In this document: positions 8,621-63,410 of the stretch, one piece after another
Layout: the number at the start of each line of letters is the position of its first letter
Position numbering within the stretch: the stretch's first letter is position 1
Origin: Muricea muricata
Taxonomy: Eukaryota; Cnidaria; Anthozoa; Malacalcyonacea; Plexauridae
Direction of reading: 5' to 3'
NCBI GenBank assembly: GCA_963855995.1
Contig: OY979716.1
Location: 37,721,624 to 37,785,623 of the forward strand
Length of the DNA stretch: 64,000 nt
Notes under the pieces: generated by a model
What the model was told of the DNA's origin: nothing
Seen by the model: the letters and a program-made list of their open reading frames with translations, nothing else
The model's database searches: none
Program-made: the position numbers and the translations under genes

Positions 8621-8625
8621 TTTTT

Positions 8626-43695: not shown

Positions 43696-44661
43696 GTATG
43701 TCAAACATTTCATGTATTCAATATTTTTATTTTACAATAAGTAATGTGCTTTAGTGTCTATTGCATTTTCACCTAGTAGCTTTGTTTTCATGCCTCCCAC
43801 CATCTTGCCGAAGAAATCTTTTATGAATGCTATTCATGCCCTCTAAAAGTAACCACATGAAAAAAGGCTATTGGGTAAAAAAGGCAAAAAAAAATGGTAA
43901 AGGGTATTGATCAAATACATGGAAAAGCTTCTTATTCCAATTGAGTAGCATCAGCCTGTCTTAAATATTTTTTGATGAACAATTTCATCACAGAAAATTT
44001 CTGTCCTAGTTTTTAGTCAATGTTTGTTGAATTTCTGATGTTGAGAAAATTCAACCCTACAGAAATAGGAGAGCATCTCGACAGGTTCATGGCACTTCCA
44101 GCAGAGGTATGGTTGAAGCAATCAAATCTACTAGTGATGCTGTATTTTAGTACTACTTCTTGAGCTAACAAATATCTTTAAATGTTAGAAAGAACAATAA
44201 CAAGAAACATATTTTCCTGTGTGACAGAAACCAAACTCATGTGTTTTCATCTGCAGAAAAATTAGAGGTAATGGAAAATGGCTGGGTGAAATGCAAATTT
44301 CATTTCCAATATCTGCCACAAATGTTGCTGTGAGAGATTTATTGTTTCGGTGCTGTATTTTGTAGATTTCTGGTTTCAGTAGTCATCCATGCCCATGAAG
44401 AAGCACAAAGGGTCTCAAAGAAATAGTGCATGATTTTTTCATGAAAAACTGAACTATGCAGTGGGTATTTTTTCATCAAGCCCACATCTCACCCAACATG
44501 CCTACATTTCTGGAAAATTATATAGACAGTGATCCAGCAGAGCAAACTGATGTCCCCCCTAGTGATTACATTTATGCCACTGTCCATAAAGCTTTAAAGA
44601 TTGAGATTGCTAAAATGGCTTATAGTAACATATACTTTATGTGGTTGTGTAATTGTTTTAG

Positions 44662-44714
44662 GGCATATCGTCATTTAAAAGAAACTGGAGGTTTTCAGGT
44701 TCTCTTAAGTAAAG
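44662..44714 (+). CDS. Outer HECT gene, exon split by the P-like element (left part)
   Basis: After a GTTTTAG acceptor it reads AYRHLKETGGFQVLLSK. The frame is cut by the transposon start at 44,715 and picks up exactly after the second copy of the 7-bp duplication, at 50,152. Confidence 0.6.
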
Positions 44715-44826
44715 CACAGTTAATCGAAATAAGACGGTTAGGCTAGATGTACCACGTGACAAAATATGTTATTGTCCACTTTTTATTCTGGCCACGTGAC
44801 CAATAAGCGGTATCAACGCCGAAGCG
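44715..44826 (+). repeat. Left terminal inverted repeat of the P-like element
   Basis: It pairs with the reverse complement of 50,030-50,144. CACGTGAC occurs twice in the left end and once in the right end, and is a candidate binding motif for the THAP domain or an E-box. It ends near GGTATCAACG, about 110 bp ahead of the transposase ATG. Confidence 0.75.
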
Positions 44827-44936
44827 CATATATATTTACACTAGGAGTCTAGGAGTGGCAACCGCAAATACTGCGATTTATTTTGAACTATACTACACTT
44901 GAAATAAATAATCATTTGCGAGGAGTTTTGGTGGAT

Positions 44937-47798
44937 ATGGGTGGTGGAAACTGCGCCTTTTTTGGCTGTCCGACATGCGGAAAGCACAAAATTTCGCTTT
45001 TCCGAGTCCCTTCAGTCGCAGCTTCTGATGGAGAACATACGAAGGAAATGAAGCTAAAAGCGCGTAAAGAATGGCTTCGTTTGGTCTTAAGGACACGCGA
45101 ATTGACCCCAGAACTCAAGAAGAGAATTGAGGCAAATAATATATTCATCTGCGAGCGGCATTTTAGATCTGAATGCATCTTAACTGGTAAGCGTTTCACA
45201 TGTAACGCAGTCGTCTATTGTGTAATTAAACACGAACAATTTACATACACGGCGAAACATCATGAATATTTTATTTTTGTTATATATTGGACTATGTCTA
45301 AACAGAATTTAATTTGTATCTCTCCAGGCAAAAGAAAGACATTGGTTACAGGGAGCGTTCCTACAGAGAATTTGCCTGAGAAAAGTCACGAAGCGCCTAA
45401 ACGTGAACGCCTACCGCTTGTGAGGAAAGTTGACACTCCTGACATTGGCGAGCCTTCAACATCATCTCAGCCTGGGTGGTCTGAGCCACGATTTTTAAAT
45501 ATGGTGGATTTTACAATGCAGCTCGAGCAAGAAACAATTCATCCATGGAAAATTAATAAATCGTACGAAGGTGAATTACGAATTGAATTGGACGACAAAA
45601 TTCATAGTACTCCCAAGTACTCTGTTGTTGTGAGTTTGTCCATGGAATTCACTGTATTTATATTCAACTGGCCAGTGCCTGACCATCATCCTATTTATAA
45701 GGAACGAAAACGTTCTGTCCAGAATTCAGACATTGCTGAACTATTGCAAACGCTTTGCAATTCCAGACTTTGCGAAGGATTGACAGAGGATGAAGATATA
45801 TTGTCTGTTGCTTGTGATCCAACTGGAAATCCAGATTCGAACCCAAATACCATTGTTCGTCATAGTGTGCCAAAAACCATTCAAGTAGATGAGGCTCACT
45901 TTGAAGTGACACTTGCATATCGGTCAACTTCTTGTGACATGCTTGTTGAAGGTGACCCTTCAAAAGAACTGTGTAAAACATGTTTAAGTGCCTTCAACAC
46001 AATAAAGAGAGCAACAAGGAAGAAAAGTAAAGCATCTGAAACCTCAGCAAAACCTAAAGCTGCATTAGCTTCATGCGGAGCAGACAAATTAAGAGCAACA
46101 GTAAAGTCCACCCGAATCCAGGTGAAAGATCTGGAGGGTCGCTTAAAAGAGTTGCAGCTAAAGATTGAACAGCAAGGGATTAGCATTAGCGAAGGTCTTG
46201 AAAAAGATATTCTAAAGATCATGGGTGGACAAAGCCTGGAAGCAACACCACATATGAAGTTTTTTTGGCAAGAACAAATGAAACTTCTACAGTCAGCCAA
46301 AATGGGTAGAAGGTACCACCCAAAAGTGATTCGCTTTGCTCTTTCCATACATAGCAAATCTCCTTCAGCTTATAGAGAATTACAAGACAGTGGTGCACTC
46401 ATTCTCCCAAGTGAACGAGTTCTGCGGGACTATAGGAACTACTTTAAACCGAAAGCTGGCATCAACAAAGAAAATGTTGAAATGTTACGAGCAAAGACCT
46501 CATCATTCACTCCTGTACAGAGATGGGTTGCAGTTGTTATGGATGAAATGAAGATCCAGTCAAACCTTGTGTTTGATAAAGTGTCTGGAGATCTGATTGG
46601 TTTTATTGATTTAGGTGATCCAATGACCAACTTTGCCAATCTCAGTGACGATGATCCTATTGCCACCCATGCCCTGGCATTTCTTGTGAGGGGATTATGC
46701 ACTGATTTGAAACATATCATTGCATATTTCTTCACAGGAAATGTTACATCATTCCAACTTATGCAACGTTTTTGGAGAACTGTAGCTGTTTTAGATGCAT
46801 CACTTAATCTACATGTGTGTGCTGCTATGAATGATGGTGCTTCCCCAAACCGAAAGTTTTTCCGCCTACATTCCAAGCTGGCCAAGGAAGTGAATTGTGA
46901 TGTTGTGTATAAAACACCAAACATTTTTGCACCATCACGATTCATTTTCTTTTTTGCAGATTCCCCTCATCTTATGAAGACAGCTCGTAACTGCCTTTAC
47001 AATTCTGGCTCTGGAAGTCATAGTCGTTTAATGTGGAATGATGGGCAGTATCTGGTGTTCCGGCACATAGCTGACCTCTTTTACGGTGACCAAGAGTTTG
47101 CTCTCCACACCCTCCCTAAACTCACCTTGGACCACATTGTCCTGACTTCCTACAGTAAAATGAAAGTCAATCTTGCTGTCCAGGTCTTAAGCAAGTCAGT
47201 GTCCCTTGCCCTGCGAGAAAGTGGTAAACAGGATGTGGCTGGTACAGCAGAGTTCTGTGAAATGATGAATGGATTCTTTGACTGTACAAATGTGAGGTCT
47301 CTGACTGAGCACACCAGGAGGAAGAATCCATTCATCAGGCCATACGAATCTCTTGACGATGAGCGATTGACATGGCTGAAAGATGTCTTCCTTGCATACC
47401 TGCAAAGATGGAAACAGAGCACCCTGACGTGTGAAGGTAATTACACTGCTGATGCCAGACAGAGGATGTTCCTTTCTGGTCAAACCTATGAAGGCTTTGT
47501 GATTTCTGTTCACTCCCATGTAGATGTCATCAAATTCCTGTTGTCAGAAGGATTTAAGTATGTACTCACCGAGAGATTCATGCAGGATGTGCTAGAGGAC
47601 TACTTTGGCCACCAAAGAGAGAAAGGAAGAAGATCAGACAATCCAACTGCTCAGCAGTTTGGATACAATGACCTTACCATTTCTTGCCAACAAGATATTG
47701 CTCCAGTAATTCGTGGAAATGTTGGTGGACGATATGGCAAAGTTAAATGGCACCAGGTCAGTGATGAACCAGTGCAAAAACGCAAAAAGGAAAAATAA
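44937..47798 (+). CDS. P/THAP9-like transposase
   Basis: The start is the ATG of MGGGNCAFFGCPTC. The frame is open farther upstream only through a TTG. Exon 1 (44,937-45,186) encodes a THAP finger: Cys6, Cys11, Trp in KEWLRL, and ICERHF. An intron of 141 bp (GTAAGC...CTCCAG, 45,187-45,327) has no stop and is a multiple of three. Exon 2 gives a coiled-coil-like segment (KVKDLEGRLKELQLKIEQQG written in part) and then the RNase-H-fold catalytic core: VVMDEMKIQSNLVFD, AMNDGASPNRKFF, FADSPHLMKTARN. It closes with NPTAQQFGYNDL and a lysine-rich tail. Spliced length is about 906 residues, close to THAP9 and P transposases. There are no frame lesions. The usual C-terminal YIAGY segment is not in this protein but in the neighbouring gene. 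Confidence 0.9.
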   Translation: MGGGNCAFFGCPTCGKHKISLFRVPSVAASDGEHTKEMKLKARKEWLRLVLRTRELTPELKKRIEANNIFICERHFRSECILTGKRFTCNAVVYCVIKHEQFTYTAKHHEYFIFVIYWTMSKQNLICISPGKRKTLVTGSVPTENLPEKSHEAPKRERLPLVRKVDTPDIGEPSTSSQPGWSEPRFLNMVDFTMQLEQETIHPWKINKSYEGELRIELDDKIHSTPKYSVVVSLSMEFTVFIFNWPVPDHHPIYKERKRSVQNSDIAELLQTLCNSRLCEGLTEDEDILSVACDPTGNPDSNPNTIVRHSVPKTIQVDEAHFEVTLAYRSTSCDMLVEGDPSKELCKTCLSAFNTIKRATRKKSKASETSAKPKAALASCGADKLRATVKSTRIQVKDLEGRLKELQLKIEQQGISISEGLEKDILKIMGGQSLEATPHMKFFWQEQMKLLQSAKMGRRYHPKVIRFALSIHSKSPSAYRELQDSGALILPSERVLRDYRNYFKPKAGINKENVEMLRAKTSSFTPVQRWVAVVMDEMKIQSNLVFDKVSGDLIGFIDLGDPMTNFANLSDDDPIATHALAFLVRGLCTDLKHIIAYFFTGNVTSFQLMQRFWRTVAVLDASLNLHVCAAMNDGASPNRKFFRLHSKLAKEVNCDVVYKTPNIFAPSRFIFFFADSPHLMKTARNCLYNSGSGSHSRLMWNDGQYLVFRHIADLFYGDQEFALHTLPKLTLDHIVLTSYSKMKVNLAVQVLSKSVSLALRESGKQDVAGTAEFCEMMNGFFDCTNVRSLTEHTRRKNPFIRPYESLDDERLTWLKDVFLAYLQRWKQSTLTCEGNYTADARQRMFLSGQTYEGFVISVHSHVDVIKFLLSEGFKYVLTERFMQDVLEDYFGHQREKGRRSDNPTAQQFGYNDLTISCQQDIAPVIRGNVGGRYGKVKWHQVSDEPVQKRKKEK
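45187..45327 (+). other. Intron of the P-like transposase, open and in phase
   Basis: The donor is G|GTAAGC and the acceptor CTCTCCAG|G. Splicing joins LTG to KRKTLVTG without a frame change. Length is 47 codons exactly with no stop, so a retained form would add a hydrophobic, Tyr/Phe-rich insert after the THAP finger. Confidence 0.65.
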
Positions 47799-48256
47799 CT
47801 ATTAAAAACTGTGTATTTATATTAACTAGTAAAAAACATCTTTTAGTGATTTAATGTAACATTAGCATTACATGTTAAGATATGGTCAAGCTCATTCTGC
47901 ACATAACAAAATTTTTAGCATGAGAATTATAACAGGAGAATTTTAATTAGTTAAATTAAAGTAACAGGTGAAGTTCATTCAGAAACATTGTTATGAACAG
48001 AAAAATGTAAAGAGCAGACTTGACCAACTCTTAAATTTGGATAATTCCTCATCACATCAGTATTGTATTTTACCATTTAGAATACTAACTGTGGTTATGA
48101 GTGCTAACATATCTACTCAAGAACCAATATTTGCATTTAAAACTATAAAAATAATTTCTACAGGACAATGGACAATTTGCATGTTGAATGATCTTTCGGG
48201 CTGTGGAGACTTTGTTCTTCTTGCCTGAATCAAAGTTTAACATTAGTTGCAATGGC

Positions 48257-48394
48257 AAAGCCACCCCAACTATCTAGTCCTGCTATGCTAATTTTTGAAC
48301 ATATTATTTACTCAAATTGTTAGAAATTAATTGTTGTTGAAGTATGTATACATGATAAATTAACATAGCAGGACTAAAGATTGGGCTGGTTTTT
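48257..48394. repeat. Inverted repeat between the convergent genes of the P-like element
   Basis: The arms CCTGCTATG-TAAT and their complement (48,258-48,292 and 48,360-48,392) share AGTCCTGCTATG and CCAACTATCT-like blocks with a spacer of about 70 bp. It could be a tiny nested MITE or an RNA hairpin in the overlapping 3' regions. Confidence 0.55.
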
Positions 48395-48448
48395 CCACTG
48401 ATTAGTTGTACTGTGTTTTCAGCAAAGTTTCCAAACCATGTATACAAT

Positions 48449-48491
48449 GTTAGCTCTTCATACAATTTTACTTATTGTATGAAGAGCTAAC
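48449..48491. repeat. Perfect 17-18-bp hairpin
   Basis: GTTAGCTCTTCATACAAT and its exact complement are separated by a short AT loop. It lies between two convergent 3' ends and may help 3'-end formation or be a relic. Confidence 0.75.
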
Positions 48492-48773
48492 CTACTAACG
48501 ACCAATGAAAACATAGAGTTATAAACATGTACATAGATCAGTAACTTGTTCAAAGTAACATACATATTTTCATAGCAATATCAACATGATAATGGTTTTA
48601 CATGGTTGCACCTTTGTTCATAAATGTTGTTAATATTTCAGAGTTCAAATCAATCTTAAAAATATATATACTATTTCTCAGTATCTAAATGATTTTATTT
48701 TTAATTGTCTTTGCTTCGTTTTAAGTCCTTTCTTAGTGACTTACTCTTTGCATATTTTTCCTTTATTTTGTAT

Positions 48774-49943
48774 TTAGTAATATAATCCCTTGCATATGAA
48801 AATGAGCGAACCCGTACATACAATTTGATTATATTTTCTAAACACAACTTGTGGGTAGAACGAACTTGATTCCTCAATGCCTGATTCCAACACAATGTTT
48901 TCCCAAAGTGATTTGACCACTGGAGAGTTTAAGGTTTTTTCACAGATATTTTCAACAGGTATATTATGCAAAACATGTTCACCTTCGCCAATATTTTTCC
49001 TGAATAAGATCTCGGCTTCTTCAACAATGCCCATAAGGTGATGACTAGGAGCCACAAGACCTCCTCTGCTACGAGCAAGAATAAAATTATTGTCTGATTC
49101 GGTCGACTTTAAAGACTGCAACAGGGTGTTTAATTCCTCACTGCAGTTATTCTTGCTTTTTCTAGACTTTTGGTAAAGTTTAGATACCATGTATCCTGCG
49201 ATGTAGGAAAGAGGACCACGTTCCACCGGGTCAAGTTTTAAATCACACGCGGTCGTGGTTCTTGCCTCGTCGCGGTTTTGGCAAAGTTTGAAAAACGCAA
49301 CTAAACGATCTGGTATCTCGATCATGATCACATTGGCGGCATGAGAGTGTGGACAGTTTAAATATGTGCTGGCATCGAGAATCAATCCGTAGATTTCTTC
49401 AAGTAGTCTGTCTTGGTTTTTCTTGCGGCAAAATTTTTCATATAATGGCAGCACAGCATCAAACAAAGCTTTGCTGCAGGAGGCAATCTTAACGGCAGCA
49501 ATCAATTCAGTTCCATATAAATTGTCAGTACACAAAAACTTGTTTTAATTGCTTCGACAATGCCAGCGAGTCTTTCAAACGTTAGGCGACTCTTTTCGTT
49601 GTCTTCGAGTGAATCAACGGTAGCTTTGCGGTGTTTAGAATTCGTGTGTCTTGTCAAGCCACCCTTTGACTTACAAACTTTGGTGCAATTGGGGCAAGGG
49701 AATGATTTTTTGCCTTCAATTTCAGTTAGGGCTTTAACAAACTCAGTATCGACTTCGTCAGTCTCTGTGTCTAAAATATCGAGCGATAGATTTAGATTAA
49801 AGTCCGTAAATCTATCGCCTCGCGACTCACTATCAGTTTCGGAATCCAACACATTTTCGCCAATGTTTTCATCTTCTTCACATCCAAGATTCTCCTCACG
49901 AAAATCTTGAACGACGCCAATATCAATGCCTTTCTCGCTCTCC
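48774..49943 (-). CDS. Second gene of the P-like element: C2H2 finger plus P-transposase C-terminal-like domain
   Basis: The minus strand starts at MESEKGIDIGVVQDF (about 49,943). It continues with an acidic region and then a C2H2 finger (FPCPNCTKVCKSKGGLTRHT, ending SKH). After a one-base frame change at a T-run near 49,542 it goes on with DNLYGTELIAAVKIASC, DPVERGPLSYIAGYMVSKLY and a Ser/Thr-rich tail. The GPLSYIAGYM motif is the C-terminal LEYIAGYV.RK segment normally found at the end of P/THAP9 transposases. Here it is encoded apart, in the opposite orientation, with its own DNA-binding finger. The frame change (AGTTTTTGTG) could be a real lesion, a sequencing error or frameshift translation. 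An upstream in-frame start at MKYDTCLELG (49,999) is also possible. Confidence 0.65.
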
Positions 49944-50029
49944 ATCTTGTAAACTTCAAAGAGGAAATATTTCCCAAGTTCCAAACATGTATCATATTTC
50001 ACGCCATCGTTTTACATCAACACTCCTCG

Positions 50030-50144
50030 CTGCTTGATACCGCTTATTGATCACGTGACAAAATAAAAAGTGGTTCCCGACATCATTTTCCGAATCCTTT
50101 GAAGTTTGCTGGCTAGCCTAACCATCTTATTTCGATTAACTGTG
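50030..50144 (-). repeat. Right terminal inverted repeat of the P-like element
   Basis: It is the inverted partner of the left end (CTTATTTCGATTAACTGTG at the tip). The second gene of the element starts about 90 bp inside it, so each end probably carries a promoter. Confidence 0.75.
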
Positions 50145-50151
50145 AGTAAAG

Positions 50152-50376
50152 CAAAGAAAAGAGGAGAGATTGAAGTAGTGTGTCATGGAAGCTGCAGCAC
50201 CGAGCAGCTTCGTTGCTTTGGAACTTGCAGAATCTACATAAGACCGTTACAAAAAAGTATTCCGCTAACAAGATCAGTTCATGTGAAACAGGAATTTCAG
50301 GCGTGCCTCTCTTGTGGAGAATTGTTTGGGATTAGCGAGATGCATTGTCATTTGGAAACTTTACACAATCTTTAAC
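50152..50376 (+). CDS. Outer HECT gene, exon split by the P-like element (right part)
   Basis: Continuing the frame of 44,662-44,714 it reads AKKRGEIEVVCHGSCSTEQL, then CRIYIRPLQKSIPLTRSVHV and the zinc-finger motif CLSCGELFGISEMHCHLETLH. That is C-x2-C-x(11)-H-x5-H, similar to UBZ ubiquitin-binding fingers. CRIYIRPLQK corresponds to CKIYVKPLQE of the inner gene. A TAA stop lies three bases ahead of the GTATGT donor in this frame. Confidence 0.6.
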
Positions 50377-51152
50377 GTATGTTTTAATATTTTATCAAGG
50401 GGTATCAATCATCGCAAGAGGACGAAGATGAGGGCAACGATGATTCAAACCTCGTTCGTGACCCTTTTAACAATGAGCCGCCTAGGTTAGTATATTTGTC
50501 CATATCGTTGTGGTTACATATAAGAGTGCATTTCACATTTATGTTTCTTGTAACATGTTTATGGAAAAAACACTGTACGGGTTGCAATATACACAAATTT
50601 TTGAGCTCAATAATCACTTGTACTTCATCGTATTACTAAATAGAAGTGAATTAGAAAAAGGTTAACGTAAAAATTTACTTTCACTTGAGAATTTCTCAAT
50701 GACGCCAGGTTAATAACGGGATATTTAATCCTCCATATTCGCATTTTATAAAACACCTCATCAAATTATCGTGATTTAATTGGCTACTTGCAATCACGTG
50801 ATTCAATGAACATTCATTATTTATACAATAGTTGCTCTTCTGAACTTTCTACATTAAAATATTGCATTTTCAGTTACGATACTGCATATGGATCGAACTT
50901 ATTTGTAACGTAAAATGATATATTTCAGAATTGTGCACACTCCACGCACGGATTTTCACTACCATGTCGTTATCCATTTGTCTTAGGGACAACGCTGTTA
51001 TAGAGATTGTCGACACTGAGCATAACGAAAATAATGATGTAAGTGTGTGTGGAGACAAGCCTTTGTAAGGGACCCTGTGTCCTATTGCTTGTTTCCCGTG
51101 ATTGTTGTCACAAATGTCATAAATAAAAAGATCATGTGCACGAACACGAACC

Positions 51153-51580
51153 TATGGCGTCAGATTTCCGCCAATATTCATGTTTGTTGTCTAGCAACAT
51201 GTTTTCGTATCGAAGCTAAAATAAGAAATGAAGTTGTGACTTTCTGCACGTTCCCGAAATCGAACTTACAATAATTTTGACAAGTTTCTAAATTTAACAA
51301 AAAAGAGAGATGAAGTCTTTTGTAAAATGAACATCTCTCGAAATGTAACGCTTCAAATATATCAAATCACACTTGAACTTATATCGTGGTACTAGAATAT
51401 GCAAAGCTGAAGTTTTAAAATATGTTGAATCAAGATCGTACTACTCGAATATAACAACTTCAATATCAAAATATGTTGAATTATGGCACAACGTAAAATT
51501 TCCGCCAATACTAATTAGCGTCGCGGTAAACCATCCCCTCGTCAAGAATTACTAGCGCCCAGTCTCGCCTGGCTGCTTTC
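51153..51580 (+). repeat. Left terminal inverted repeat of the IS3EU element
   Basis: It matches the reverse complement of 62,143-62,570 with only scattered substitutions. The transposase ATG (51,598) follows within 20 bp, so the repeat must hold the promoter and 5' leader. Confidence 0.9.
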
Positions 51581-52106
51581 TCTCCTCCAAATTAAACATG
51601 GCGGCAACTGATATAAATATGAATGATGAAATCATTGCTTGTTTGACCATTATTGAGGATTTAATTCCACGTTTGAACAGTCTTAGCGATCCAGACTACG
51701 TTGTGGGTATGGCTCTAAGATGTGAAGTTTTAAAGAGGCATTTTGTAAACATTGGATTTGATGATACTACCGTGCAATTAATAGACAGTGTTTGCCAAAG
51801 TTTAAACCAATTTGGCCAGCGCTCAGGAGCCCCTAACAACTTAGCGTTTCCAGCACAGGTGCACACTGGATGTCGTGGTAAACCATCATATAACATAGAT
51901 GAAGAACAGTTAAATTTTTTGTTGGAACAAGGGTTCAAAGTTTGTGAAGTGAGTGAGATGATGGGCGTAAGCGAACGAACAATACAACGACGAATGCGCT
52001 CATTTGGTATAAGTGTGGCAGGTAATGACAAGGACTATTAGTGAAATGATATATTACACACTTGATATATAATATACGTAACATAAAATATAGTATTGGA
52101 AATCCT

Positions 52107-52497
52107 ATTACCGTATTTATTCTAATAAACCCCCCGGGCGTTTATTGAAAAATACTTCAGAAGGGGGCGATTATTAGGGAGAGGCGTTTGTTAGAGAGAG
52201 GCTTTTTATTTCGAAAGTTCATAATTATAATCTCAGAAGTCAAGTTCTTCAAGAGACAAGTACACTCATTTTGAAAACACGAACAGTCATTGCTCTACCA
52301 AGTTCTTAAATTAGTTAAAGTGATTGTAAATAAAATATGTTTAAATTTGACATGTTGACTTTGTCATTTTATTTTCTCAGGGGGGGGGGATTTATAAGGC
52401 AGGGGTGTTTATTGCAAATTTCAGTAGGTTGAGGGGGCGTTTGTTGGAGTGGGGCATTTATTAGATAGAGGGTGTTCATTAGAATATATACGGTAAT
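52107..52497. mobile_element. 391-bp MITE in intron 1 of the IS3EU transposase
   Basis: The ends are inverted repeats of about 30 bp starting ATTACCGTATWTATTCTAAT. The interior is made of diverged words such as GGGGGCGTTTRTTRGAG, with a G-run near 52,380. It is non-coding. No certain target duplication was found. Confidence 0.75.
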
Positions 52498-53302
52498 CAA
52501 TTTAAACTGTACAAATTCTATTTACTGCAGGCTTTAATATTCCTACCGGTATGGGTAATTAGGGGGAGGGGGAGGGTAAATATGCTCACGGATTGGCAGA
52601 TTTAAGCAAATAACTTGTTTGGATTTTTGCTGAATCTTCATAAATTTTATCCCAAACATTTCAGGATTCGGTAAAGATTTTTTGCGGATTATCGAATTTG
52701 CCTAAGCCTATCCCCCCCCCTTTCGCAAGGTGACAGACATTACATTCGCAAAGTATTTTTGCACAAATTGCTCTGCAATTTTTTTATATGATATGAAATA
52801 TTTATGTTGGCTTGGAATTACATACTAGATGTACAAAAACATTCCAGTTTGCTTGTAGGCTGTAGCCTCAATAATCAAGATAAAACATATAATGCAACAA
52901 AAAACTGTAGAAGAGCAAGTTATTTCTACCTTGACTTTCTGAAGCCTGATGCATTATATACTGGTTTAATTTGTAGCAACTTATAGTGACATCAGTGATA
53001 ACAATCTTGCTCAACTTGTTACGGAAGCTCAACGCATGAATCCTATGATAGGTATTAGGTTAACCAAAGGTTTTCTTGTCGCCAAAGGATACAAAGTGCA
53101 ACTGGATAGGATAAGAGAATCTTTAATGTGCACCGACCCTATTGGCTTAGTTGAACGTCATACACAAACTGTAGTCAGAAGGAGATATCAAGTGCATGGC
53201 CCACTAAGTTTATGGCATATTGATGGAAATCATAAACTTATAAGGTATTAGTAAAGGTATATGCATAATCAGCTTCAAATGATGCATAAATTCTATATAT
53301 GA

Positions 53303-53474
53303 GTGTAACTAAAGTGTTAATTGTGAGGGGGGGGGGGGGTTATTCATATTTTTGCATTCTGCCCAATGAATTTCTTATGAAGTCCAACTGATTTCAAAAG
53401 AAATTTATCGAGCTGAAATTTAGAATGCGAAAATATGAATAAATACCCCTCTCCCAATTAATGCTTTAGTTACC
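53303..53474. mobile_element. 172-bp hairpin MITE in intron 2 of the IS3EU transposase
   Basis: Inverted arms of about 50 bp start GTGTAACTAAAGTGTTAATTG, then a run of about 13 G, then TTATTCATATTTTTGCATTC. The right arm carries the complement with CCCCTCTCCC in place of the C-run. Confidence 0.75.
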
Positions 53475-53684
53475 ACCGTGATCTTATAGAATCTGATATA
53501 CAATCAACAACTATGATGTGCAAAACAAACATTAAAGAAAAAAATGGTGTTGGACTATTAATTTTGTGCATTTGAGTCAGTGACTTGTCTGCTTGTGTTT
53601 GTGTCTGTATTGAAAACTGACAGTTTTGATTAATACCATTCATATGATGCGTTATCCAGGTGGAGGATTGTTGTTCATGGGGCC

Positions 53685-54214
53685 ATAATAACCATGCATA
53701 GCAAACGTAGAAAATTTTAACAGCGATTAGCTAATGATCAATTTTAGTCCTATTCCTAACATATCCAATGAAAGTGGTTACAGTGTAAGACCCGTTTATA
53801 CGATACTCGATCAGCACGGTCATGACATTGAGTTCTGGCAGTATGCGGTCGTATTTTCACTTACCACTTTTTCTACGATTAATTGCTATGGAATTCTGTA
53901 ATATTGTCACAAACCTAAGAGTCACACTCGTTTTTAAACTGAGGTATAAATGTATCACGCATGTATGCACAAATAGAAGTGCTAACCTTTTGCATTCTCG
54001 TCCAACTCTCTTCTTCGTTTAAGAATAACGTTATAAATAACCAGCCCTTGGGTAATAATTTTTTTGTCGCATTGCAACATGCCCGGGTCTAGGCCTGCCT
54101 CATATATATACGAAGTTAACAACTCTCTTAGTTCGGAAGGCAATTGTGCATCAATAGGCAGGTTTTCGAGCTAAAACAAAAAATGTACATAATGTTTTAA
54201 GTTTTTCGACAAAT
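53685..54214. repeat. 530-bp duplicate of a HECT-gene segment inserted in transposase exon 3
   Basis: It matches 56,417-56,954 closely from ATAATAACCATGCATAGC to TTTYGACAAAT, in the same orientation. The source contains a HECT exon on the minus strand (PSELRELLTPYIYEAGLDPG). The copy still encodes that exon nearly intact, but it lies in the middle of the transposase exon. No transposon ends are seen, so it is an ectopic or template-switch duplication. Confidence 0.8.
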
Positions 54215-55750
54215 GATGGCTTTTCCTGAATACCAGTTCACCTGGTAGCTTCAAATAATAATAAAGCAGATACTGTTTTGACAGCATTTATGAGTGCTGT
54301 TGAAATCTATGGCTTACCATCACGTGTGAGAAGTGACAAAGGGGGAGAAAATGTTCAAGTTGCATGGTACATGCTAAATCATACACAACGAGGACCTGGT
54401 ATAGGGAGCTTCATAACAGGTTTTTACCAAAAATATCCAGTTATAATTTATATTAATTGACACTACACACTGTTGACAAATTCTTTTTTTAAGTGAACAT
54501 CTCTATGTAGCATTCACTAATTTCTACCTGGAAAGCTTTTCCAAGGATTGGCATGGCCAAACTTGGCTATTTGCTACCATTTTCACGTTGAATGGAAGCT
54601 AATTTGTTCCCTTTATGTTATCTGTAGGCAAAAGTGTTCACAATCAGCGGATTGAGAGGCTTTGGCGCGATGTTTTTCAGGACTGCATTTGTGTATTCCA
54701 CAACCTATTTTTCGAAATGGAAAGACTAGGCATTCTTGATCCAGACAGTGAGGTCCATCTGTGGTGTCTTCATTTAGTTTTTCTCCCATTAATCAACATG
54801 AATCTTACTTGTTGGAAAAATGGATGGATACAACACCCACTTCGGTCCGAGCAGAATAAGTCTCCCATGCAGCTTTGGATCCAAGGACTTAATGCAATTT
54901 CTGAGTCAGAGTCTACCATTGCAAGGGAAATTTTCCAAGACTGTTCATAATATATCAATACGTACGGTAATGAATACTTTCTGCAGAACAACTACACAAG
55001 AAGTATTGACTTCCTATGCAATAGGATAAATTTTTAAAATACGTATTCGATTTTTAGGGAAAGGAGGACATGCAAAATTATGGCATAGATTGGGAAGAAA
55101 TTGCAGAAGACGAGCCAGATGTTGTAGAAGTGCCACAGACAACAAGCTGTCTATGTGAAGATCAGGTCAACACAATTATGACACAAATGCCAGAAAACAT
55201 AACAATTAACAACGCTGTTGAGGCTTTCATTAACATTTTAAATTTAACTATGACATACTCTCCAAGTGAATAATTCCTAATTAGGTCAAACAAAAACGTT
55301 GTGTTTTGGGTAACCAGATGGACCCCAATTTTTTCTTTAAATCTAAATTGCTGAAACTGAGAAGTATTTGTATTTAATGTTTAAAATACTCCAATTCTAA
55401 ACATGCAAAATTTCTTTATCATGCGACTTCTCCAAGAATGCACGTGGCAATGATTTGAATATTTAAGTACAAGTTATGGAAATGTTGTATACAAAATTAC
55501 ATACTAGAGAGTAGAGGCGTGGAGTTGAAACCAAAAATACCAATAAATTATTTTTTAAGCTCACCACAAATGTTTCTTACCAGAAACATGAAAAATTATT
55601 TTGTTTGACCTAACAGTCTTTTGAAATTCAAAAACAAAAATGTTTCTCCACAATATGTATGTCTCCTGAGTCCATCAACAAGAAAATGATTACCCTAATC
55701 ATACTGTACGAAAATCAATAGAACAGAATACTGTGACAAATAATATCCAG

Positions 55751-58700
55751 TTAGGAATGGTGCATGCCCATAGATCCATTACTCATGGCTATGTCCATAA
55801 ACCGTTCAAACTCCTCGCACGACTTATGCACTGTTGGTAGTGTAATTGAAAAGAAGCATGTCTCAGCAAAGGGAAAGACATTTTGCTCTTCGTGGAACTT
55901 TACAAGTAACGAAGCTCTTGGTGGTAGGTTGTTTGACGTAGTCCAGAAGCAGCATAAATCTGTGAGGGATGGTTTTTCTGGAAATAAAAACATGAACGAT
56001 TAAATTAACCTTAAATCGCAGCAAAACAAACCGTAAAAAGCGTAAACGTAAATGAATTTTACAATTACAATTTTTACAAATTTTTTTGAAACTCAAGTCA
56101 TGTGATTGTATTTTACTTTGTCAAAAATTCGGTTTCTTCACTTTTTTGGAGGCAGAAAATTAGAACAAATATTAAGTTAGCTTTGGTATACCTGCTTCGT
56201 ATTTTTCCAATTGATAAAGATATTGGAAAAAAGCATGATCGTTTCTTCGTTTTTGGAACTTTCTTCAAAAACCATAGCCGCTTTTATTTGTTCTGCTGTA
56301 ATATTTTCTTTTCCATTTTTGGAAACAGAAGTTCCAAAGTTTCAGCGGGGCATTTACCAATAATGTGTGGAAATTTACTTCATTCATTCCTACAAATAAA
56401 CGAACACACTACAGCTATAATAACCATGCATAGCAAACGTAGAAAATTGTAACAGCGATTAGCTAATGATCAATTTTAGTCCTATTCCTAACATATCCAA
56501 TGAAAGTGATTACAATGTAAGACCCGTTTATACAATACTCGATCAGCACGGTCATAACATTGAGTTCTGGCAGTATGCAGTCGTATTTTCACTTACCACT
56601 TTTTCTACGATTAATTGCTATTGAATTCTGTAATATTGTCACAAACCTAAGAGTCACACTCGTTTAAAGGTACGTCGAGGTATAAATGTATCACGCATGT
56701 ATGCACAAATAATAGAAGTGCCAACCTTTTGCAATCTCATCCAACTCTCTTCTTCGTTTAAGAATAACGTTATAAATAACCAGCCCTTGGGTAATAATTT
56801 TTTTGTCGCATTGCAACATGCCCGGGTCCAGGCCTGCCTCATATATATACGGAGTTAACAACTCTCTTAGTTCGGAAGGCAATTGTGCATCAATAGGCAG
56901 GTTTTCGAGCTAAAACAAAAAAATGTACATAATGTTTTAAGTTTTTTGACAAATTTAGTTTTATCCTACTTATTGTACTGGTTGCAGAAACCCTGAATGC
57001 CAATGGTCAAGCACAGTAATTAATAACCAAGCAACTGGTAACCAGATGTTACATCAACACTGCCAAGTTGCACACTATATATAAGGAATTACCGTTGTAG
57101 CAAGTAAATGTACCGTCGTAATTTTCTTACGTGTCCGTGTATAGAGGTGGAAAAGAAAGTAATAATCTGTCATCCCTTGCACAATAATCTAATGGTTAAA
57201 ACTTAAATTTAAAATCACCCGAGTGATATAATCTCTCAGATCAGTATCTGGAATGTCTTCCAAACCCAGTGCGAGACTTTCGAGAGAAGTATCATCGTCG
57301 TTTCCATCGACTGTTAACCTCCAGTATTGAACAACTGCTGGAGACAAACCATAGATAAAAGGGCCTTGGTGTAGAATCGAGTGCCCGATGATTCGACCAA
57401 TAGACCTGAAAGCTCCTGTACACCTGAGCACATGGTTGTCGACCGGTACCTTGTGGTCTTCTTGGCCTTCAAAAAACACAAGTGGTTTTTCTTCTTTATC
57501 GATTCCCTCCTCGATAATTTTCATCGCGCATAGTAAGAACTCTCTTATTGGGCCACTTCCTACTCCCTCCTCGCCTTCAAATTTCACACGGGGCCTTGCT
57601 TTTAAATTTATCTGCGAGTTTTTGTAGCAGCCAAGGATGTCTTTTTTAAGGTCGTCCAACCCGTCCTCCCTGGATACGATGAACCTCTGCCTAGGTGAAG
57701 ATTCGTCCACATTGTCTTCACGGAACCATTGTATAGTCAAGGGCTGGTCGTCCGTTTCGGTATTGCTATTCATCTGGACCTGTTCATTGCTGTTTACTTC
57801 TGTCTCATACACCGTGGTACCTAAAATTTCTACTTCGTCTTCAATATCTTGTAAGCCTAAAAAATGTCGAGACATACACTTGCTGACTAGTATTTATATT
57901 CCCTACACAATATGAAGATTGCAATCAAGTGTTCCTCCAACGAATTTTCTCACTGAATATTACCAAAACTATTATCTATGCAAAGTTTTGTAAAAACCTT
58001 ATCATTCTAAATTACATAATACTTGATTGAATGCAGCTGATATGTAAATTAGGTTGCATCAATTGGCATGTTGTAAAACGCAGACTGGACTCAAATTTGT
58101 AAAACGCGGACTCGAAACAGTGGAAAGCAGCCCTTAAGGCCGGTTTACACTGCACAACTTTGCTTGCAACTGTCGCATGCAATTCGCTTACAACTCGAAT
58201 TGTACAGTGTAAATTAACCCTACAACTCGCTACGGTAGTTCGACACAACACGAAAAAAGTTGTAGCCTTTTGAAATCATGCTTTAAAAGCTTACGACAAT
58301 CGTATGAAAGTCAAACCATATTTGGGCATTTTGCAACAAAAGTCGAAATAGGGAGGGGAGGGCAACGTAATAGTTTTGCAGTTTTGTTTGACAACATGCC
58401 GTCAACGTCGATGACAGCTAAGAAAAATAAAAAAGAGCAAATAGGCTCCTCTTCCGAAGAAGCGGATTCTCTTATCAACCTGTTGGGAAAGGAGGAGGCC
58501 CAGTTCAACTGCCGCCACGAAGAATACTTTAATAATCAGTCCGAAGACGAGCAAAATTGCTTACGATTTTCTTGAGTTGCATGGGTTAAGTTGTATGCGT
58601 GTAAATCTACCGAATTCGAGTTGTAAGCGAATTGCATGCGACAGTTGCAAGCAAAAGTTGTGCAGTGTAAACCGGCCTTTACAGAGCTGCCAGAGTTTTG

Positions 58701-61700
58701 ATTGGGGGAGCATAGTGAAACAGAACAAGCATGGATCTGGTATGCAGTTTCAGTTGTGTGCATCTGACAAGACACGGTAGCAGTTTGCAAAATGGCATCA
58801 TTAAGAAGCTTAAAAGTATGTCTTTCGGTTCACAGACCCGCATCGTATTTTTAGTCCAACCGCGTTTTACAAATTTGAGTCGAGTCTGCGTTTTACAACA
58901 TGCCGCATCAATTGACTTGTCTATTCATAAACATGTACAATGAATATAGGTCTTGCATTGAATCAGTGTAGTATTACAATGCTTCATCATATCGATCTAA
59001 TACCAAGTCCAATTGGGAAGCGAATTAGAGGTACCGCATTAAAAGACTTAAAACATGATTGTGACCAATACAAACCCAATAACTCCTGTGCTGCCTCATC
59101 AGCATCGCCACTGGCATTGTGAAGTGCTGACTCTATCTCATCATTACTTGCTGTGGGAACTAAATCCTGCAGTGCACTTCTAACTTCGTATGATCTAAAA
59201 GATCTAAAGCACTCTGGTCAGTTTTGTATACAGATACTACCAAATACTCAGATATACAGTAACAGACCACAAGTGAATGTGGGTTACATAATTCTTACTG
59301 TGATGTTGAACCTTCACTTGCTTTAGAAGAACTTCACAGAAGGTTTATGATGTAATGCTCCTTTCTCTTCTTTGTCTGTAAGAAATACAGAATACATTGG
59401 TACTAACTTATACTATATTATAAGTATTAGCAATATGTAAAAATTGGTAAATAACGAAATATTAACAAGACGCCTACTAAGGCTTAGGTCAAACGTCGAA
59501 CTTTTCATGCGCCGAACCTAATGCAAATGAGCTGAAACAAAGGCTTTAGATTATTAACATTGGGTTCAGCACATGAAAAGTTTGACGTTTGACCTGGGCC
59601 AAAGGCATTCACTTCACTACACATTTCGTTCTTTTCTTTTTTATAAAATCTAAAGAAGGTTCTCACATTCAGGTAAATACGCAGTCACTACTTAAATTAA
59701 CGTCATGGACTTTATTATTACAATTATTAATGATTTAATTGAATGGGAGATTCAAAATGAGCATAATTTATATGACTGTATATACCTTAGGTTGGCTACC
59801 ATGAACAGCCTGATGATGAGCTTCAATTGTGCTCATTGGTATATCCTTTTCACATATGGTGCAGGCTACCAGAGGCAATAATCCACTATCAGCCTACAGT
59901 AAGAGTAAAATATTTAGTTAAAGTTGTTGAACGTACAGCAGACGCATATCTGACTGGGAACAAACTAGTCACTTTTTTGTTCTTACTACTGGTACATTAT
60001 GACATTGTACTGTGAACAGACAGCAGCAATTGTTATCCATTTGTTAATTAGACCACAAATTTTGTACCTATGCATAGCATGGCAGACATAAACTATTTAT
60101 ACCTGTTGATCATACAGTGCAACTCACTTGTATATCTTCTTCACTATCATCATCTGAGTGTGTCAGATCCTCTTGTAAAGGTTTCACATATATTTTGCAC
60201 TGCCCTACCACTTCTTTCAGTTTTCTGGGCGAGTATGGAGGTTTCAATATACAAAAGGAAGAATTTTGTCCTGCTCTATGACATAGCATCAGCTCATACC
60301 CAGCAGAAGAAAGCTTTAGAAATTTCTTAAGTAACTGTTCATGCAAATGCATGTTATCTCCATCCAGGTTGAATGTTATTGTTGCATCCCCCAGACCTGC
60401 ATTTGCTAAAGCCGTTCTTTCCCTTACTGACAATGGGGGTTTTTCAGGGCAGCAACTTGCCAGGCAAACAAATTTTAAAGTACACATTGGAACAGTGCGC
60501 TTGTTCATACTTTTCTCTTTCTTTAGTTGCTTTCCTTTACCTTTGCCGGTGTAACCAAACAGTCTCCTGTGCTCGTTAATCGCAAAGTTAGGACTAGGCC
60601 ATGTTGAATTTGGCAAATTTTGTGACGTCTCTGGTTGAGACATTGCTTGTTGTGAGGTTCCTGCTTGTGAGGTTCCTGCTTGTACATTTTCATGTATATG
60701 AAAAAAATAAATAATCAGCAGGCACACAAATACCTTCCCTCTAATCCTGGGGAATTTCAAATAAATATTATATAAAATAATTTCTTATGCTGTGCCAGTC
60801 TTACAGTATAAATACAAAACCAAGCATAAAAAAGGAAATCAGCATTGATAGTTACAACAATGTATATACAGTGTATTTTGAGCTCCATGCTAATACAACA
60901 AATTTTATAAATATTAATAGCACTAAATTTTTATTAAATAACAGAAAGCCAAATTTACTGTCTAAACTGTTCAAAAATGTATTATGTATTAAGTATTATG
61001 CATTATGTATTAATTCTGTGATACAAAATTTGTCATCATAGGAAAATGCAACTATTTTTATTTCATTTTAAGATTGTAATAAAATAATTCTACAAAATAG
61101 AAATTGGTGGTAACTAAAATTATTATCCAGCTGAACGACAGCTTACAATACATACAGAAACGTCATTGTTGTTACCATAACAGTAGTTACAATATTTTTT
61201 TTAATTTTTCAACTACTTGGGAAGCCACCTTAAATGATGAAATATCACTATGGACCACTTGCACTGATGTCATAATGCCCCCAGTTGCCTCAATGCAACA
61301 ATATTATGTAAATGCCTGTGCAGCTTAATAAACAAGCAAGGGCTCTTCGATAGTTAATAGTTCAACATTTTGTCAAAATTTAAATTATTTGAAAATTTAT
61401 ACGAATGTTTATTTCTCCTCCAGGTGTCCAGTGTGACGTCATGTGCAAAGGGTGTAGAATCAGCACTTTTGTGATCACGCATGTACAGTAGCGTGTTTTT
61501 ATTATATGAGGGACGTTTATTGGATGATAAAATAAACATGCTATTAAAATGAAGGCAGAGTGTCACCTGCGGAATCATGCAATGATTTATTCACAGTAAA
61601 CTTGTCCACCAATTTTTGTATCTGTGAATGCAGATATTTGTCATGTAATTGTATTTGTTAGCTTGTAGCCAATTAGAGCTCTCATAAAGAATTGTTATAG

Positions 61701-62059
61701 TCTAGCGTGCGCGCGCGCTTGGGCCATCCACGTGTGAGCATTCCAATATATTTTTTAACTTTGTCTCGTTTTGTCCAAAAGGAATTACGAGAAAAAATGG
61801 CTCGTTATGTAACAAAAGTTGGCCAAATTAACTCTGAATCTTTTTAATTCAAATAAATCTTTTAAAAGAATGACAAAAGCGATGATAAAAGTAATTAATA
61901 ATAACGTAGGATACCACTGCTGCACAACAATGAACGTGAATTAACGAATCATGAATCATTCAAATATGTGTACAAGACCATACCTGTGACTTGTTGTCTC
62001 AGTCGCTCTGCTAAATTCAACAACACATTTCTCGTAGAACTTATTTCATCTGGATTCAT
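55751..62059 (-). CDS. UBZ-CUE-HECT ubiquitin ligase gene carried by the IS3EU element
   Basis: Exons read on the minus strand: 62,059-61,984 (start MNPDEISSTRNVLLNLAERL); 60,678-60,128 (NFAINEHRRLFGYTGKG; GLGDATITFNLDGDN; CKIYVKPLQEDL); 59,893-59,786 (CTICEKDIPMSTIEAHHQAVH, a UBZ-like zinc finger); 59,194-59,077 (DLVPTASNDEIESALHNASG, DADEAAQELLG: a CUE/UBA-like ubiquitin-binding helix bundle); 57,856-57,219 (HECT N-lobe start RVKFEGEEGVGSGPIREFL); 56,909-56,726 (PSELRELLTPYIYEAGLDPG); and about 55,993-55,751 (HECT C-lobe with the catalytic Cys in FPFAETCFFSITLPTVHKS). Splice sites are mostly canonical. The region 56,100-56,450 should hold the exon before the C-lobe and looks damaged. The product would attach ubiquitin to a target; its role in transposition is unknown. 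Confidence 0.75.
56417..56954. repeat. Source copy of the duplicated HECT-gene segment
   Basis: It is the in-place version of the segment copied to 53,685-54,214 and includes the HECT exon at 56,726-56,909 with its introns. Identity is high, so the duplication is more recent than the element's fixation or is under little constraint. Confidence 0.8.
57219..57856 (-). CDS. HECT N-lobe exon of the IS3EU ligase gene
   Basis: The exon is fully open for about 212 codons and ends at a GTGATT donor. Motifs are LTIQWFREDNVDESSPRQRF, RVKFEGEEGVGSGPIREFL and RSIGRIIGHSILHQGPFIYG, which form the E2-binding N-lobe of HECT ligases. The lack of stops over this length in an otherwise decayed region argues for recent selection or a young copy. 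Confidence 0.8.
58137..58678. mobile_element. 542-bp Harbinger MITE with 3-bp TTA duplication
   Basis: The ends are inverted repeats of about 65 bp starting AGGCCGGTTTACACTGCACA. TTA flanks both ends (58,134-58,136 and 58,679-58,681), the typical PIF/Harbinger target. The interior keeps a coding remnant (58,397-58,575) of a Myb/MADF-like partner protein, so it is a deletion derivative of an autonomous element. Confidence 0.85.
58397..58575 (+). pseudogene. Myb/MADF-like fragment inside the Harbinger MITE
   Basis: From MPSTSMTAKKNKKEQIGSSS the frame runs into EEADSLINLLGKEEAQFNCR and EEYFNNQSEDEQ. This resembles the start of Harbinger-encoded Myb-like proteins (W..EE...LI.L......L......DY.N......A), with the first Trp replaced. 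The rest of the domain is deleted. Confidence 0.5.
59481..59600. mobile_element. 120-bp palindromic MITE
   Basis: The arms GGTCAAACGTCGAACTTTTC and ATGCGCCGAACC are inverted at 59,563-59,600. It lies in an intron of the IS3EU HECT gene and is non-coding. Confidence 0.7.
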
Positions 62060-62142
62060 TTTTAACAATATCCACAAAAGCGATAAGCGAATGCTTTCCC
62101 TGCTTCGCGTGCACCAAGACCAAAATTTCAGTCAAAACGTTA

Positions 62143-62570
62143 GAAAGCAGCCAGGCAAGACTGGGCGCTAGTAATTCTTGAGGGGGGGACGGTTTACTGC
62201 AACGCTAATTATTATTGGCGGCAATTTTACGTTGTGCCATAATTCAAGATATTTTGATATTGAAGTTGTTATATTCGAGTAGTACGATCTCGATTCAACA
62301 TATTTTAAAACTTCAGCTTTGCATATTCTAGTACCACCATATAAGTTCAAGTGTGATTTGATATATTTGAAGCGTTTACATTTCGAGAGATGTTCATTTT
62401 ACAAAAGACTTCATCTCTTTTTTTGTTAAATTTAGAAACTTGTCAAAATTATTGTAAGTTCGATTTCGGGAACGTGCAGAAAGTCACAACTTCATTTCTT
62501 ATTTTAGCTTCAATACGAAAACATGTTGCTAGACAGCAAACATAAATAGTAGCGGAAATCTGACGCCATA
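62143..62570 (-). repeat. Right terminal inverted repeat of the IS3EU element
   Basis: This is the inverted partner of 51,153-51,580. It is followed by the direct flank CGAACC. The HECT gene start (62,059) lies about 85 bp inside it. Confidence 0.9.
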
Positions 62571-63045
62571 CGAACCTAGTGCTGACTTGGTGAATGAACC
62601 TCCAGCTGGATCTGGCGATCATACTCAAGAAAACCTGGGAGCATGAAAAGCGTAATGGTAGCCAATTTTAACACCTGTACGGAATTTTATGGTTAATTTT
62701 TGTTTTTAGCGATGAACAGCCTAACCGCAGCTACGAGGATCACTTGAATTTCACGATCAGTGGAACATTGTCGAACACTTAAGTGTACATATTTTGATAT
62801 TCTACAGTAACAACATGGTTTATTAAACATTTAGCTGCTAGGGCTGTTAAAATCAAAGCGCTTACAGTATATATACAGTGGCATACCATCTTCGTACCCA
62901 GGCCTTAATGGCGGCCTGCGTTGCCATAAGCCCTGGGACTAATCGAAAGCAGATGTAATTTGATTGATCATTAGAATGCAATGGAATGTAGGAAACTTAG
63001 CGATTAACTAAGAGAGGATAATTTTTTTTACATTTTATTTCTTAG

Positions 63046-63410
63046 AAATGAGAACGACGAACCCGTTAAGGTGTTACGTACGTTTGTTGCTCATTTATTG
63101 CGAGGCAAGAGTGTACTTATAGAGGGTCAAACACCAGAAATATTTGTTTCATGGTGGAATGTCTATGAAGAATGCATGGACAAACTATTGAGTGGCACAA
63201 GCCTCAACTATAGCTTTCCTCTGGAAGTAACATATGTTGGAGAATGTGCTCAAGATATGGGCAGCCCACATAAAGAATTCTTGGGAGCAATGATGCGAGA
63301 AATAAAACTCAAATTATTTACAGAAAAGGATGGCAAAACAACTTATATCTTGCGGGATTATATGGTTTCAGTGAACAGGATGCATTATTCAAGGGCTGGA
63401 ATTGTCTTTG
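63046..63410 (+). CDS. Outer HECT gene, HECT N-lobe exon
   Basis: It is bounded by a TTTCTTAG acceptor and a GTATGC donor. It is open throughout. It reads VLRTFVAHLLRGKSVLIEGQ, then FPLEVTYVGECAQDMGSPHK and FLGAMMREIKL, the V.F.GE...D.GGP..EF start of a HECT domain. HECT ligases form a thioester with ubiquitin on a C-lobe Cys, which here would lie beyond the window. Confidence 0.65.

What the first reader, a model, noticed from the sequence alone, without database searches (positions are those of the whole stretch)
51153..62570. IS3EU-type transposon that carries its own UBZ-CUE-HECT ubiquitin ligase
Seen directly: 428-bp inverted repeats, a perfect 6-bp flank CGAACC, a DDE transposase starting inside one repeat and a HECT ligase gene starting inside the other. 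The HECT protein has a UBZ-like finger, a CUE/UBA-like helix bundle, a HECT N-lobe and a C-lobe with the catalytic Cys still present. Inference: the ligase is part of the mobile unit, not a host gene caught by chance, because its start lies 85 bp from the terminal repeat. It might modify the transposase or host silencing factors, or extend the life of the transposition complex.
Basis: partly seen in the sequence, partly recalled or inferred. Interest (0 to 1): 0.85.

Follow-up and report, generated by a model that had tools for sequence, protein, structure and literature searches.

The report
Transposon carrying its own ubiquitin ligase
This is a damaged 11.4-kb cut-and-paste transposon that carries, besides its transposase, a gene for a HECT ubiquitin ligase facing it tail to tail; a second, very distant element shows the same pairing, so the ligase looks like part of the transposon's equipment rather than a stray host gene.

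Summary
Window 51153-62570 is a DNA transposon with ~430-bp inverted repeats (95.8%), termini TATGG..CCATA and a perfect 6-bp target duplication. It encodes a spliced integrase-core transposase (Pfam rva_4, E=1.7e-77) and, tail to tail, a HECT gene. Termini and duplication fit the published IS3EU description; an IS3EU tree could not be made.

This copy is damaged: the transposase holds a stop and a 527-bp near-copy of the element's own HECT exon 7; HECT exons 1-7 are open, exons 8-9 are not in one frame.

Decisive addition: contig G249:C78, a eukaryote-like stretch in a bacterial bin, has a distant IS3EU-type transposase (33-55% identical by segment) and an uninterrupted HECT ORF in the same layout, 185 bp apart (477 here), the only HECT match in that bin. 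So the pairing is not one chance capture. Against: two sponge-bin transposase loci show no HECT within 518 and 730 bp, so the ligase is not shown to be universal.

The element sits inside a related gene that a P-like transposon also splits. Targets are unknown; removal of host restraint factors is my leading guess. My searches found no report of a HECT-bearing IS3EU.

The parts
51147..51152 (.). target site duplication CGAACC, left
62571..62576 (.). target site duplication CGAACC, right
51153..51581 (+). left terminal inverted repeat, starts TATGG
   Evidence: 95.8% identity to the right repeat, alignment
62142..62570 (-). right terminal inverted repeat, ends CCATA on +
51598..55273 (+). transposase gene: 51598-52021, 52977-53244, 53660-53687 continuing at 54215-54419, 54628-54948, 55058-55273 (the join between the last two is inferred: no GT at 54949, a stop follows)
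   Evidence: reading frames and splice sites; Pfam rva_4 E=1.7e-77, cut-off passed; presumed D, D and E columns invariant in a 4-sequence alignment
53688..54214 (+). 527-bp insert in the transposase, a near-copy (95%) of the HECT exon-7 region 56414-56954 of the same element, same orientation; an in-frame TGA follows shortly after it
55751..62059 (-). HECT ligase gene, predicted exons 62059-61984, 60675-60128, 59893-59786, 59375-59338, 59194-59076, 57856-57219, 56909-56726 (one open frame, 570 aa), then exon 8 56389-56192 and exon 9 55977-55751 (not in one frame)
   Evidence: frames and GT/AG sites; last exon Pfam HECT E=3e-6
60128..60538 (-). conserved N-terminal domain of the HECT protein ('...KIYVKPLQEDL'), shared with three loci of the sponge-symbiont bin G001
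   Evidence: structure model unusable (mean pLDDT 42.6)
59786..59893 (-).
59076..59194 (-). UBA/CUE-like exon
   Evidence: GIP1_N E=1.7e-4, UBA_At5g58720 E=0.0022, both below cut-off
55754..55975 (-). HECT C-lobe with the TCF..LP motif around the presumed catalytic Cys
43444..51038 (+). 5' part of a surrounding (outer) gene with the same N-terminal domain and a finger: exons about 43444-43695, 44662-44714 continuing at 50152-50372, about 50400-50485 and one ending at about 51038
   Evidence: N-domain 39% identical to G001:C131 over 59 columns, E=2.8e-8 against four sequences; the first, third and last exon are assigned by eye
63046..63410 (+). possible further exon of the outer gene, reads like a HECT N-lobe by motif only
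   Evidence: by eye; no Pfam or PDB match and not beyond shuffles

Best explanation
It is a degenerate copy of a two-gene IS3EU-type cut-and-paste transposon, probably of an animal, with one gene reading inward from each end. Shown: the ends, the target duplication, an integrase-core transposase, and a HECT gene whose 3' end faces the transposase's 3' end; the same pairing and layout in a second, highly diverged element. Inferred: each long inverted repeat supplies a promoter, so transposase and ligase are made from the same kind of end; the ligase is a regular accessory protein of one IS3EU lineage, kept because it helps the element. Most likely role (inference, about 0.3): the ligase uses its UBA-like and finger modules to find ubiquitylated or chromatin-bound proteins and marks host proteins that restrain transposition or its repair. 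This copy no longer works: the transposase was broken by a stop and by a patch of the element's own HECT region, plausibly from template switching during gap repair, and the HECT 3' exons have lost frame.
For: Ends and TSD. IS3EU termini always TA..TA and TSD usually 6 bp: PMC10045372 passages; TAYGG..CCRTA in a set of fungal IS3EU: PMC12730594 passage. Transposase: rva_4 E=1.7e-77. HECT: Pfam E=3e-6; seven exons with GT/AG sites and one frame. Independent pairing: G249:C78 has rva_4 (E=1.4e-75) and HECT (E=1.5e-6, over cut-off) on facing strands, 185 bp between the stops; this HECT ORF also matches AREL1 chains in the PDB (E=3.5e-4) and is the only HECT match at E<=1 in that 2.1-Mb bin. HECT pieces of the two elements are alike: 0 of 500 shuffles reach the score for exons 6+7 (59, highest shuffle 53) and for exon 9 (55, highest 47). 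Self-patch. In fungi, the TET/JBP-carrying IS3EU families also have an alpha-kinase gene opposite to the transposase.
Against: 2 of 4 transposase loci with at least 500 bp beyond the stop lack a visible HECT: G001:C118 (518 bp) and C139 (730 bp, holding a retrotransposon-like ORF by eye); the same scan detected C78 (31.6 bits) and the window (23.4 bits, just under the 23.9 cut-off). C78's HECT-side end lies off the contig, so its HECT is not shown between two ends; its transposase-side end is one of four CC[AG]TA candidates, picked by eye; its animal origin is inferred from introns and gene content. The window's HECT protein (exons 1-7) finds nothing in G249 at E<=0.1, and Pfam HECT finds nothing in G001 although that bin has the N-domain. 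HECT N-domain loci C141, C131, C203 and the outer gene of this window show no IS3EU transposase; C203 shows no IS3EU ends, so such genes may also exist outside IS3EU. The two HECT proteins are only 24% identical and share the N-terminal domain at best marginally (59 of 5000 shuffles reach the score). Nothing here tests ligase activity or targets.
Confidence: 0.72

Rival explanations
1. Chance capture: a host HECT gene was picked up once by this element, as DNA transposons often pick up host fragments, and has no role in transposition.
For: The HECT gene keeps host-like introns; a related gene surrounds the element, so such genes exist nearby; two sponge-bin transposase loci show no HECT; this copy's HECT is broken.
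Against: A nearly full-length gene from an ATG 82 nt from the repeat to a C-lobe, not a fragment; the same tail-to-tail layout in a very diverged element with an uninterrupted HECT ORF. Chance would have to act twice in the same geometry.
Confidence: 0.13
2. Nested elements: the HECT gene belongs to another mobile element or to host DNA that became enclosed between two IS3EU ends (a composite), so that transposase and HECT do not form one unit.
For: The region is full of nested insertions (P-like element 44715-50144; inverted repeats at 58065-58904 in a HECT intron). A 26-nt stretch at 54479-54504, in a transposase intron, is 85% alike to part of both terminal repeats (D5 and I9), which could be a remnant or chance.
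Against: One pair of long, 95.8% identical ends with one perfect 6-bp duplication brackets both genes; apart from that pair, one search lists only short imperfect pairs (22-26 nt) whose arms stand on either side of the HECT gene; C78 repeats the arrangement.
Confidence: 0.07
3. The ligase is part of the element but acts on the transposase itself: it limits transposase level or its time on DNA and so lowers the damage to the host, instead of attacking host factors.
For: Separate gene under its own end allows independent dosage (layout); the ubiquitin pathway controls the life of many DNA-bound complexes (established knowledge, recalled).
Against: No data on targets; TET/JBP genes carried by fungal transposons, IS3EU included, are argued to counter host silencing (PMC12730594, abstract passage).
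Confidence: 0.25

Closest known systems
IS3EU/GingerRoot superfamily DNA transposons (Repbase; PMC10045372, passages)
   Same: TA..TA termini, 6-bp target duplication, integrase-type transposase
   Different: A HECT gene is not among the cargo described in the passages read; inverted repeats of ~430 bp (whether unusual was not tested)
Fungal IS3EU with alpha-kinase and TET/JBP genes (PMC12730594, passages) and 'Intons' (conference report PMC3520738, passage)
   Same: IS3EU with one accessory gene in the opposite orientation to the transposase; enzymes carried as cargo
   Different: Cargo is a HECT ubiquitin ligase, not a kinase or dioxygenase; the host appears to be an animal (inferred)
Helitrons with VTD or OTU deubiquitinase domains (PMC9741609, passages)
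   Same: Transposons that carry a ubiquitin-pathway enzyme, suggested there to help transposition
   Different: There a deubiquitinase within the element's own reading frame in a rolling-circle element; here a ligase as a separate gene in a cut-and-paste element
AREL1 and G2E3-type HECT ligases
   Same: HECT C-lobe with catalytic-Cys motif; AREL1 is the best PDB match (E=0.035 for the window's protein; E=3.5e-4 for C78's)
   Different: Different N-terminal modules; likeness to G2E3 is recalled, not tested. Unclassified repeats of Cottus with a blastx match to G2E3 are reported in PMC5638112 (passage)

Membership tests
IS3EU superfamily | TA..TA termini | tested here: met
   TATGG..CCATA; criterion from PMC10045372
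IS3EU superfamily | target site duplication usually 6 bp | tested here: met
   CGAACC on both sides
IS3EU superfamily | integrase-type DDE transposase | tested here: met
   rva_4 E=1.7e-77; presumed D, D, E columns invariant in A1, 4 sequences. That rva_4 covers IS3EU is my recollection
IS3EU superfamily | groups with IS3EU/GingerRoot transposases in a tree | not testable with these tools
   Repbase and GingerRoot proteins are not held
HECT E3 ligases | C-lobe with catalytic Cys in (T)C..(L)P context | tested here: met
   Pfam HECT E=3e-6, over cut-off; aligned to AREL1, E=0.035
HECT E3 ligases | complete N-lobe | tested here: inconclusive
   Exons 1-7 give no Pfam HECT match up to E=1 and only a weak PDB alignment (SMURF1, E=0.25); the C78 relative's ORF aligns to AREL1 in N- and C-lobe
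HECT E3 ligases | intact reading frame in this copy | tested here: not met
   Exon 8 has stops in all three frames; frame change in exon 9 by eye. Speaks of this copy, not of the lineage
UBZ finger | match to a UBZ profile | tested here: not met
   No Pfam match; the CxxC...H-x4-H pattern is there
UBA/CUE-like domain | match to a UBA-like profile | tested here: inconclusive
   GIP1_N E=1.7e-4, 22.2 bits against a cut-off of 26.4
Two-gene element with HECT as a constant part | HECT beside the transposase in other copies | tested here: inconclusive
   2 of 4 informative loci (window and C78 yes; C118 and C139 not seen)

The most novel reading that the evidence does not exclude
A lineage of animal IS3EU transposons, old enough for its transposases to have diverged to between a third and a little over half identity, carries its own HECT ubiquitin ligase as a standing second gene, and much of the large family of HECT genes with this N-terminal domain in animal genomes (often annotated G2E3-like, recalled) is transposon cargo or its domesticated remains.
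Probability: 0.35. Interest if true: 0.78.

Novelty: new variant of a known kind. Interest (0 to 1): 0.6.

Why it matters
Transposons are reported to carry deubiquitinases, kinases and DNA-demethylating enzymes; a ubiquitin ligase would be a direct tool to remove host proteins that hold a transposon in check, or to tune its own transposase. It makes a testable system for how DNA transposons handle host proteostasis, and it warns that HECT gene counts in invertebrate genomes may be inflated by transposon genes.

Tried and rejected
G001 contigs: blastn at E<=1e-3 shows no DNA shared between the HECT-N contigs (C141, C131, C203) and the transposase contigs C118, C127 and C139; C133, a transposase fragment, shares short repeats with C203, more than 10 kb from C203's HECT piece. 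A TATGGC upstream of the HECT piece of C203 looked like an IS3EU end but has no partner end in the contig and, by eye, lies in retrotransposon-like sequence; dropped. Structure models of the N-domain and of the HECT N-lobe exon are unusable (mean pLDDT 42.6 and 35.2); no fold search was run. The outer gene's exon at 63046-63410 as a HECT N-lobe: not significant (42 of 500 shuffles reach the score against C78, 69 of 500 against the inner gene; no Pfam or PDB match); kept only as a motif-level reading. NCBIfam, two proteins: nothing. Window HECT protein in G249: nothing. Pfam HECT in G001: nothing; in the 14 control genomes it rang in 2, below the cut-off. rva_4: of 311 genomes of the order, 72 matched at E<=0.001, but only G001 and G249 strongly; the other genomes' matches (best 6.7e-10) cover part of the profile and are taken to be bacterial insertion sequences. 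Class and phylum samples of 369 and 398 genomes, G001 among them, gave only G001 at E<=1e-12.
Full report
Observation. The stretch 51153-62570 is bounded by inverted repeats of about 430 bp, 95.8% identical, that start TATGG and end CCATA and are abutted on both sides by CGAACC. This is the anatomy of one insertion event, far beyond chance.

Genes. On the + strand a transposase with exons from 51598 to 55273 matches Pfam rva_4 at E=1.7e-77. On the - strand a HECT gene starts at 62059, 82 nt from the inner edge of the other repeat, and ends at 55751; its first seven predicted exons give one open frame of 570 aa with GT/AG splice sites, and its last exon matches the HECT C-lobe (E=3e-6). The two genes meet tail to tail with 477 bp between the stops. 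Modules: an N-terminal domain ending in '(K/R)xYxxPxQ', a C2H2-type finger without a Pfam match, a UBA-like exon below cut-off, then HECT.

Damage. The transposase is interrupted by 527 bp (53688-54214) that repeat, at 95%, the HECT exon-7 region of the same element; after it comes an in-frame stop. One search lists no inverted repeats within the insert, and passing over it leaves the frame open up to that stop, so a patch copied from within the element during gap repair is the simplest reading (inference). HECT exon 8 has stops in all three frames and exon 9 appears to change frame (by eye). This copy is a fossil for both genes; assembly errors cannot be excluded as a cause of the small lesions.

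Family. IS3EU elements are described as always having TA..TA termini and usually 6-bp duplications (PMC10045372, passages); a set of fungal members ends TAYGG..CCRTA (PMC12730594, passages). Both are met. A transposase tree with Repbase IS3EU was not possible.

Relatives. One scan of GTDB contigs with conserved transposase blocks gave 44 candidate stretches and 3 confirmed loci, all from a Cycloclasticus bin of a poecilosclerid sponge; they carry IS3EU-type transposases (C118, C139, C127) and are taken as sponge DNA. The same bin has three loci with the HECT N-terminal domain (C141, C131, C203), although Pfam HECT itself finds nothing there. A search of 311 held genomes of that order for rva_4 found one more strong bin, G249. 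Its contig C78 (8233 bp) holds the transposase on one strand and, 185 bp away on the other, an uninterrupted HECT ORF. The HECT ORF matches Pfam HECT (1.5e-6) and AREL1 structures (3.5e-4), and it is the only HECT match in the bin; the window's own HECT protein is too far off to find it at E<=0.1. The transposase is 33-55% identical to the window's, depending on the segment; the HECT proteins are 24% identical but score above all of 500 shuffles in two separate parts. Upstream of the transposase the contig has a GCCATA that would fit an IS3EU end; it is one of four CC[AG]TA strings in the stretch that I inspected, chosen by eye. The HECT-side end is beyond the contig. That C78 is eukaryotic, and probably animal, is inferred from its introns and genes.

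Against. C118 has 518 bp and C139 730 bp beyond the transposase without a HECT signal, in a scan of the opposite strand that detects C78 (31.6 bits) and the window (23.4 bits, just under the 23.9 cut-off). C139's stretch contains a retrotransposon-like ORF (by eye), so it may be interrupted; C118 is unexplained and may be a HECT-less family. So 2 of 4 informative transposase loci have the ligase. C127, C133 and G249:C103 are cut off or fragments and were not counted; nor was C144, a weak partial match.

Surroundings. The element lies in a larger + strand gene. Its N-domain exon is split by a P/THAP-like transposon at 44715-50144 (32-nt inverted repeats, 97%, 7-bp duplication AGTAAAG); with the flanks joined the exon reads through and is 39% identical to G001:C131 over 59 columns (E=2.8e-8 against four sequences). 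A later exon at 63046-63410 reads like a HECT N-lobe by motif but fails statistical tests. So the HECT-bearing transposon seems to have landed in an intron of a gene of a related kind. Whether that outer gene is an older IS3EU element or a host gene cannot be told, since its 3' end is beyond the window.

Mechanism. What is shown is gene content and layout. That the repeats act as promoters, that the ligase is active in intact copies and that it helps transposition are inferences. I favour an attack on host restraint or repair factors over self-limitation, by analogy with TET/JBP-carrying fungal transposons (abstract passage) and with transposon deubiquitinases (PMC9741609, passages), with low confidence (about 0.3).

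Print. I searched for IS3EU with HECT (20 of 1,046 listed), HECT with DNA transposons (20 of 61), G2E3 with transposons (20 of 24), IS3EU alone (all 35), HECT with cnidarian gene families (15 of 20), transposon-encoded ubiquitin enzymes (15 of 38, 89: all 13) and phase-specific E3 ligase with transposons (12 of 16,476, hardly informative). No listed title or abstract start reports a HECT-bearing IS3EU. Of papers I saw passages of PMC10045372, PMC12730594, PMC3520738, PMC4455052, PMC9587614, PMC9741609 and PMC5638112 only; PMC12062965 was searched for HECT and IS3EU and has neither; the rest as listings. Subscription journals and Repbase entries are not covered, so a Repbase entry with such a gene is possible. 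[quoted passage not shown]

Noticed in passing
window 44715-50144: P/THAP-like DNA transposon (TNP-like RNase H E=1.8e-23, THAP E=4.6e-6) with a second, convergent gene at about 50011-48774 on - carrying a C2H2 finger (E=8.9e-4, below cut-off): another two-gene, tail-to-tail layout, inserted in the outer gene's N-domain exon with a 7-bp duplication AGTAAAG.
   Followed up: partly
window 53688-54214 and 56414-56954: A 95% self-copy of the HECT exon-7 region placed in the transposase in the same orientation, without obvious mobile-element ends: looks like filler copied during gap repair.
   Followed up: partly
window 58065-58904: Nested inverted repeats (43-45 nt arms, 98-100%) inside a HECT intron, probably a small non-autonomous insertion.
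   Followed up: no
window 6471-11708: Minus-strand pieces with a ubiquitin hydrolase-like segment (UCH E=1.6e-4, below cut-off) and a PHD-like finger (E=0.0067, below cut-off) close together; possibly another element with ubiquitin-pathway cargo.
   Followed up: no
window 34728-35267: PIF1-like helicase ORF (E=7.4e-9).
   Followed up: no
G001 (L001-L003, L011-L016, L026) and G249 (L047): Bacterial reference bins contain eukaryote-like contigs with introns and eukaryotic transposons: contamination that can serve as a source of eukaryotic relatives.
   Followed up: yes
L009 (G001:C141) 2857-3105: Repeated 'EDDATxQQAIYQS' stretches that resemble ubiquitin-interacting motifs between the N-domain and the HECT start (by eye; no Pfam match to such a motif).
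   Followed up: no
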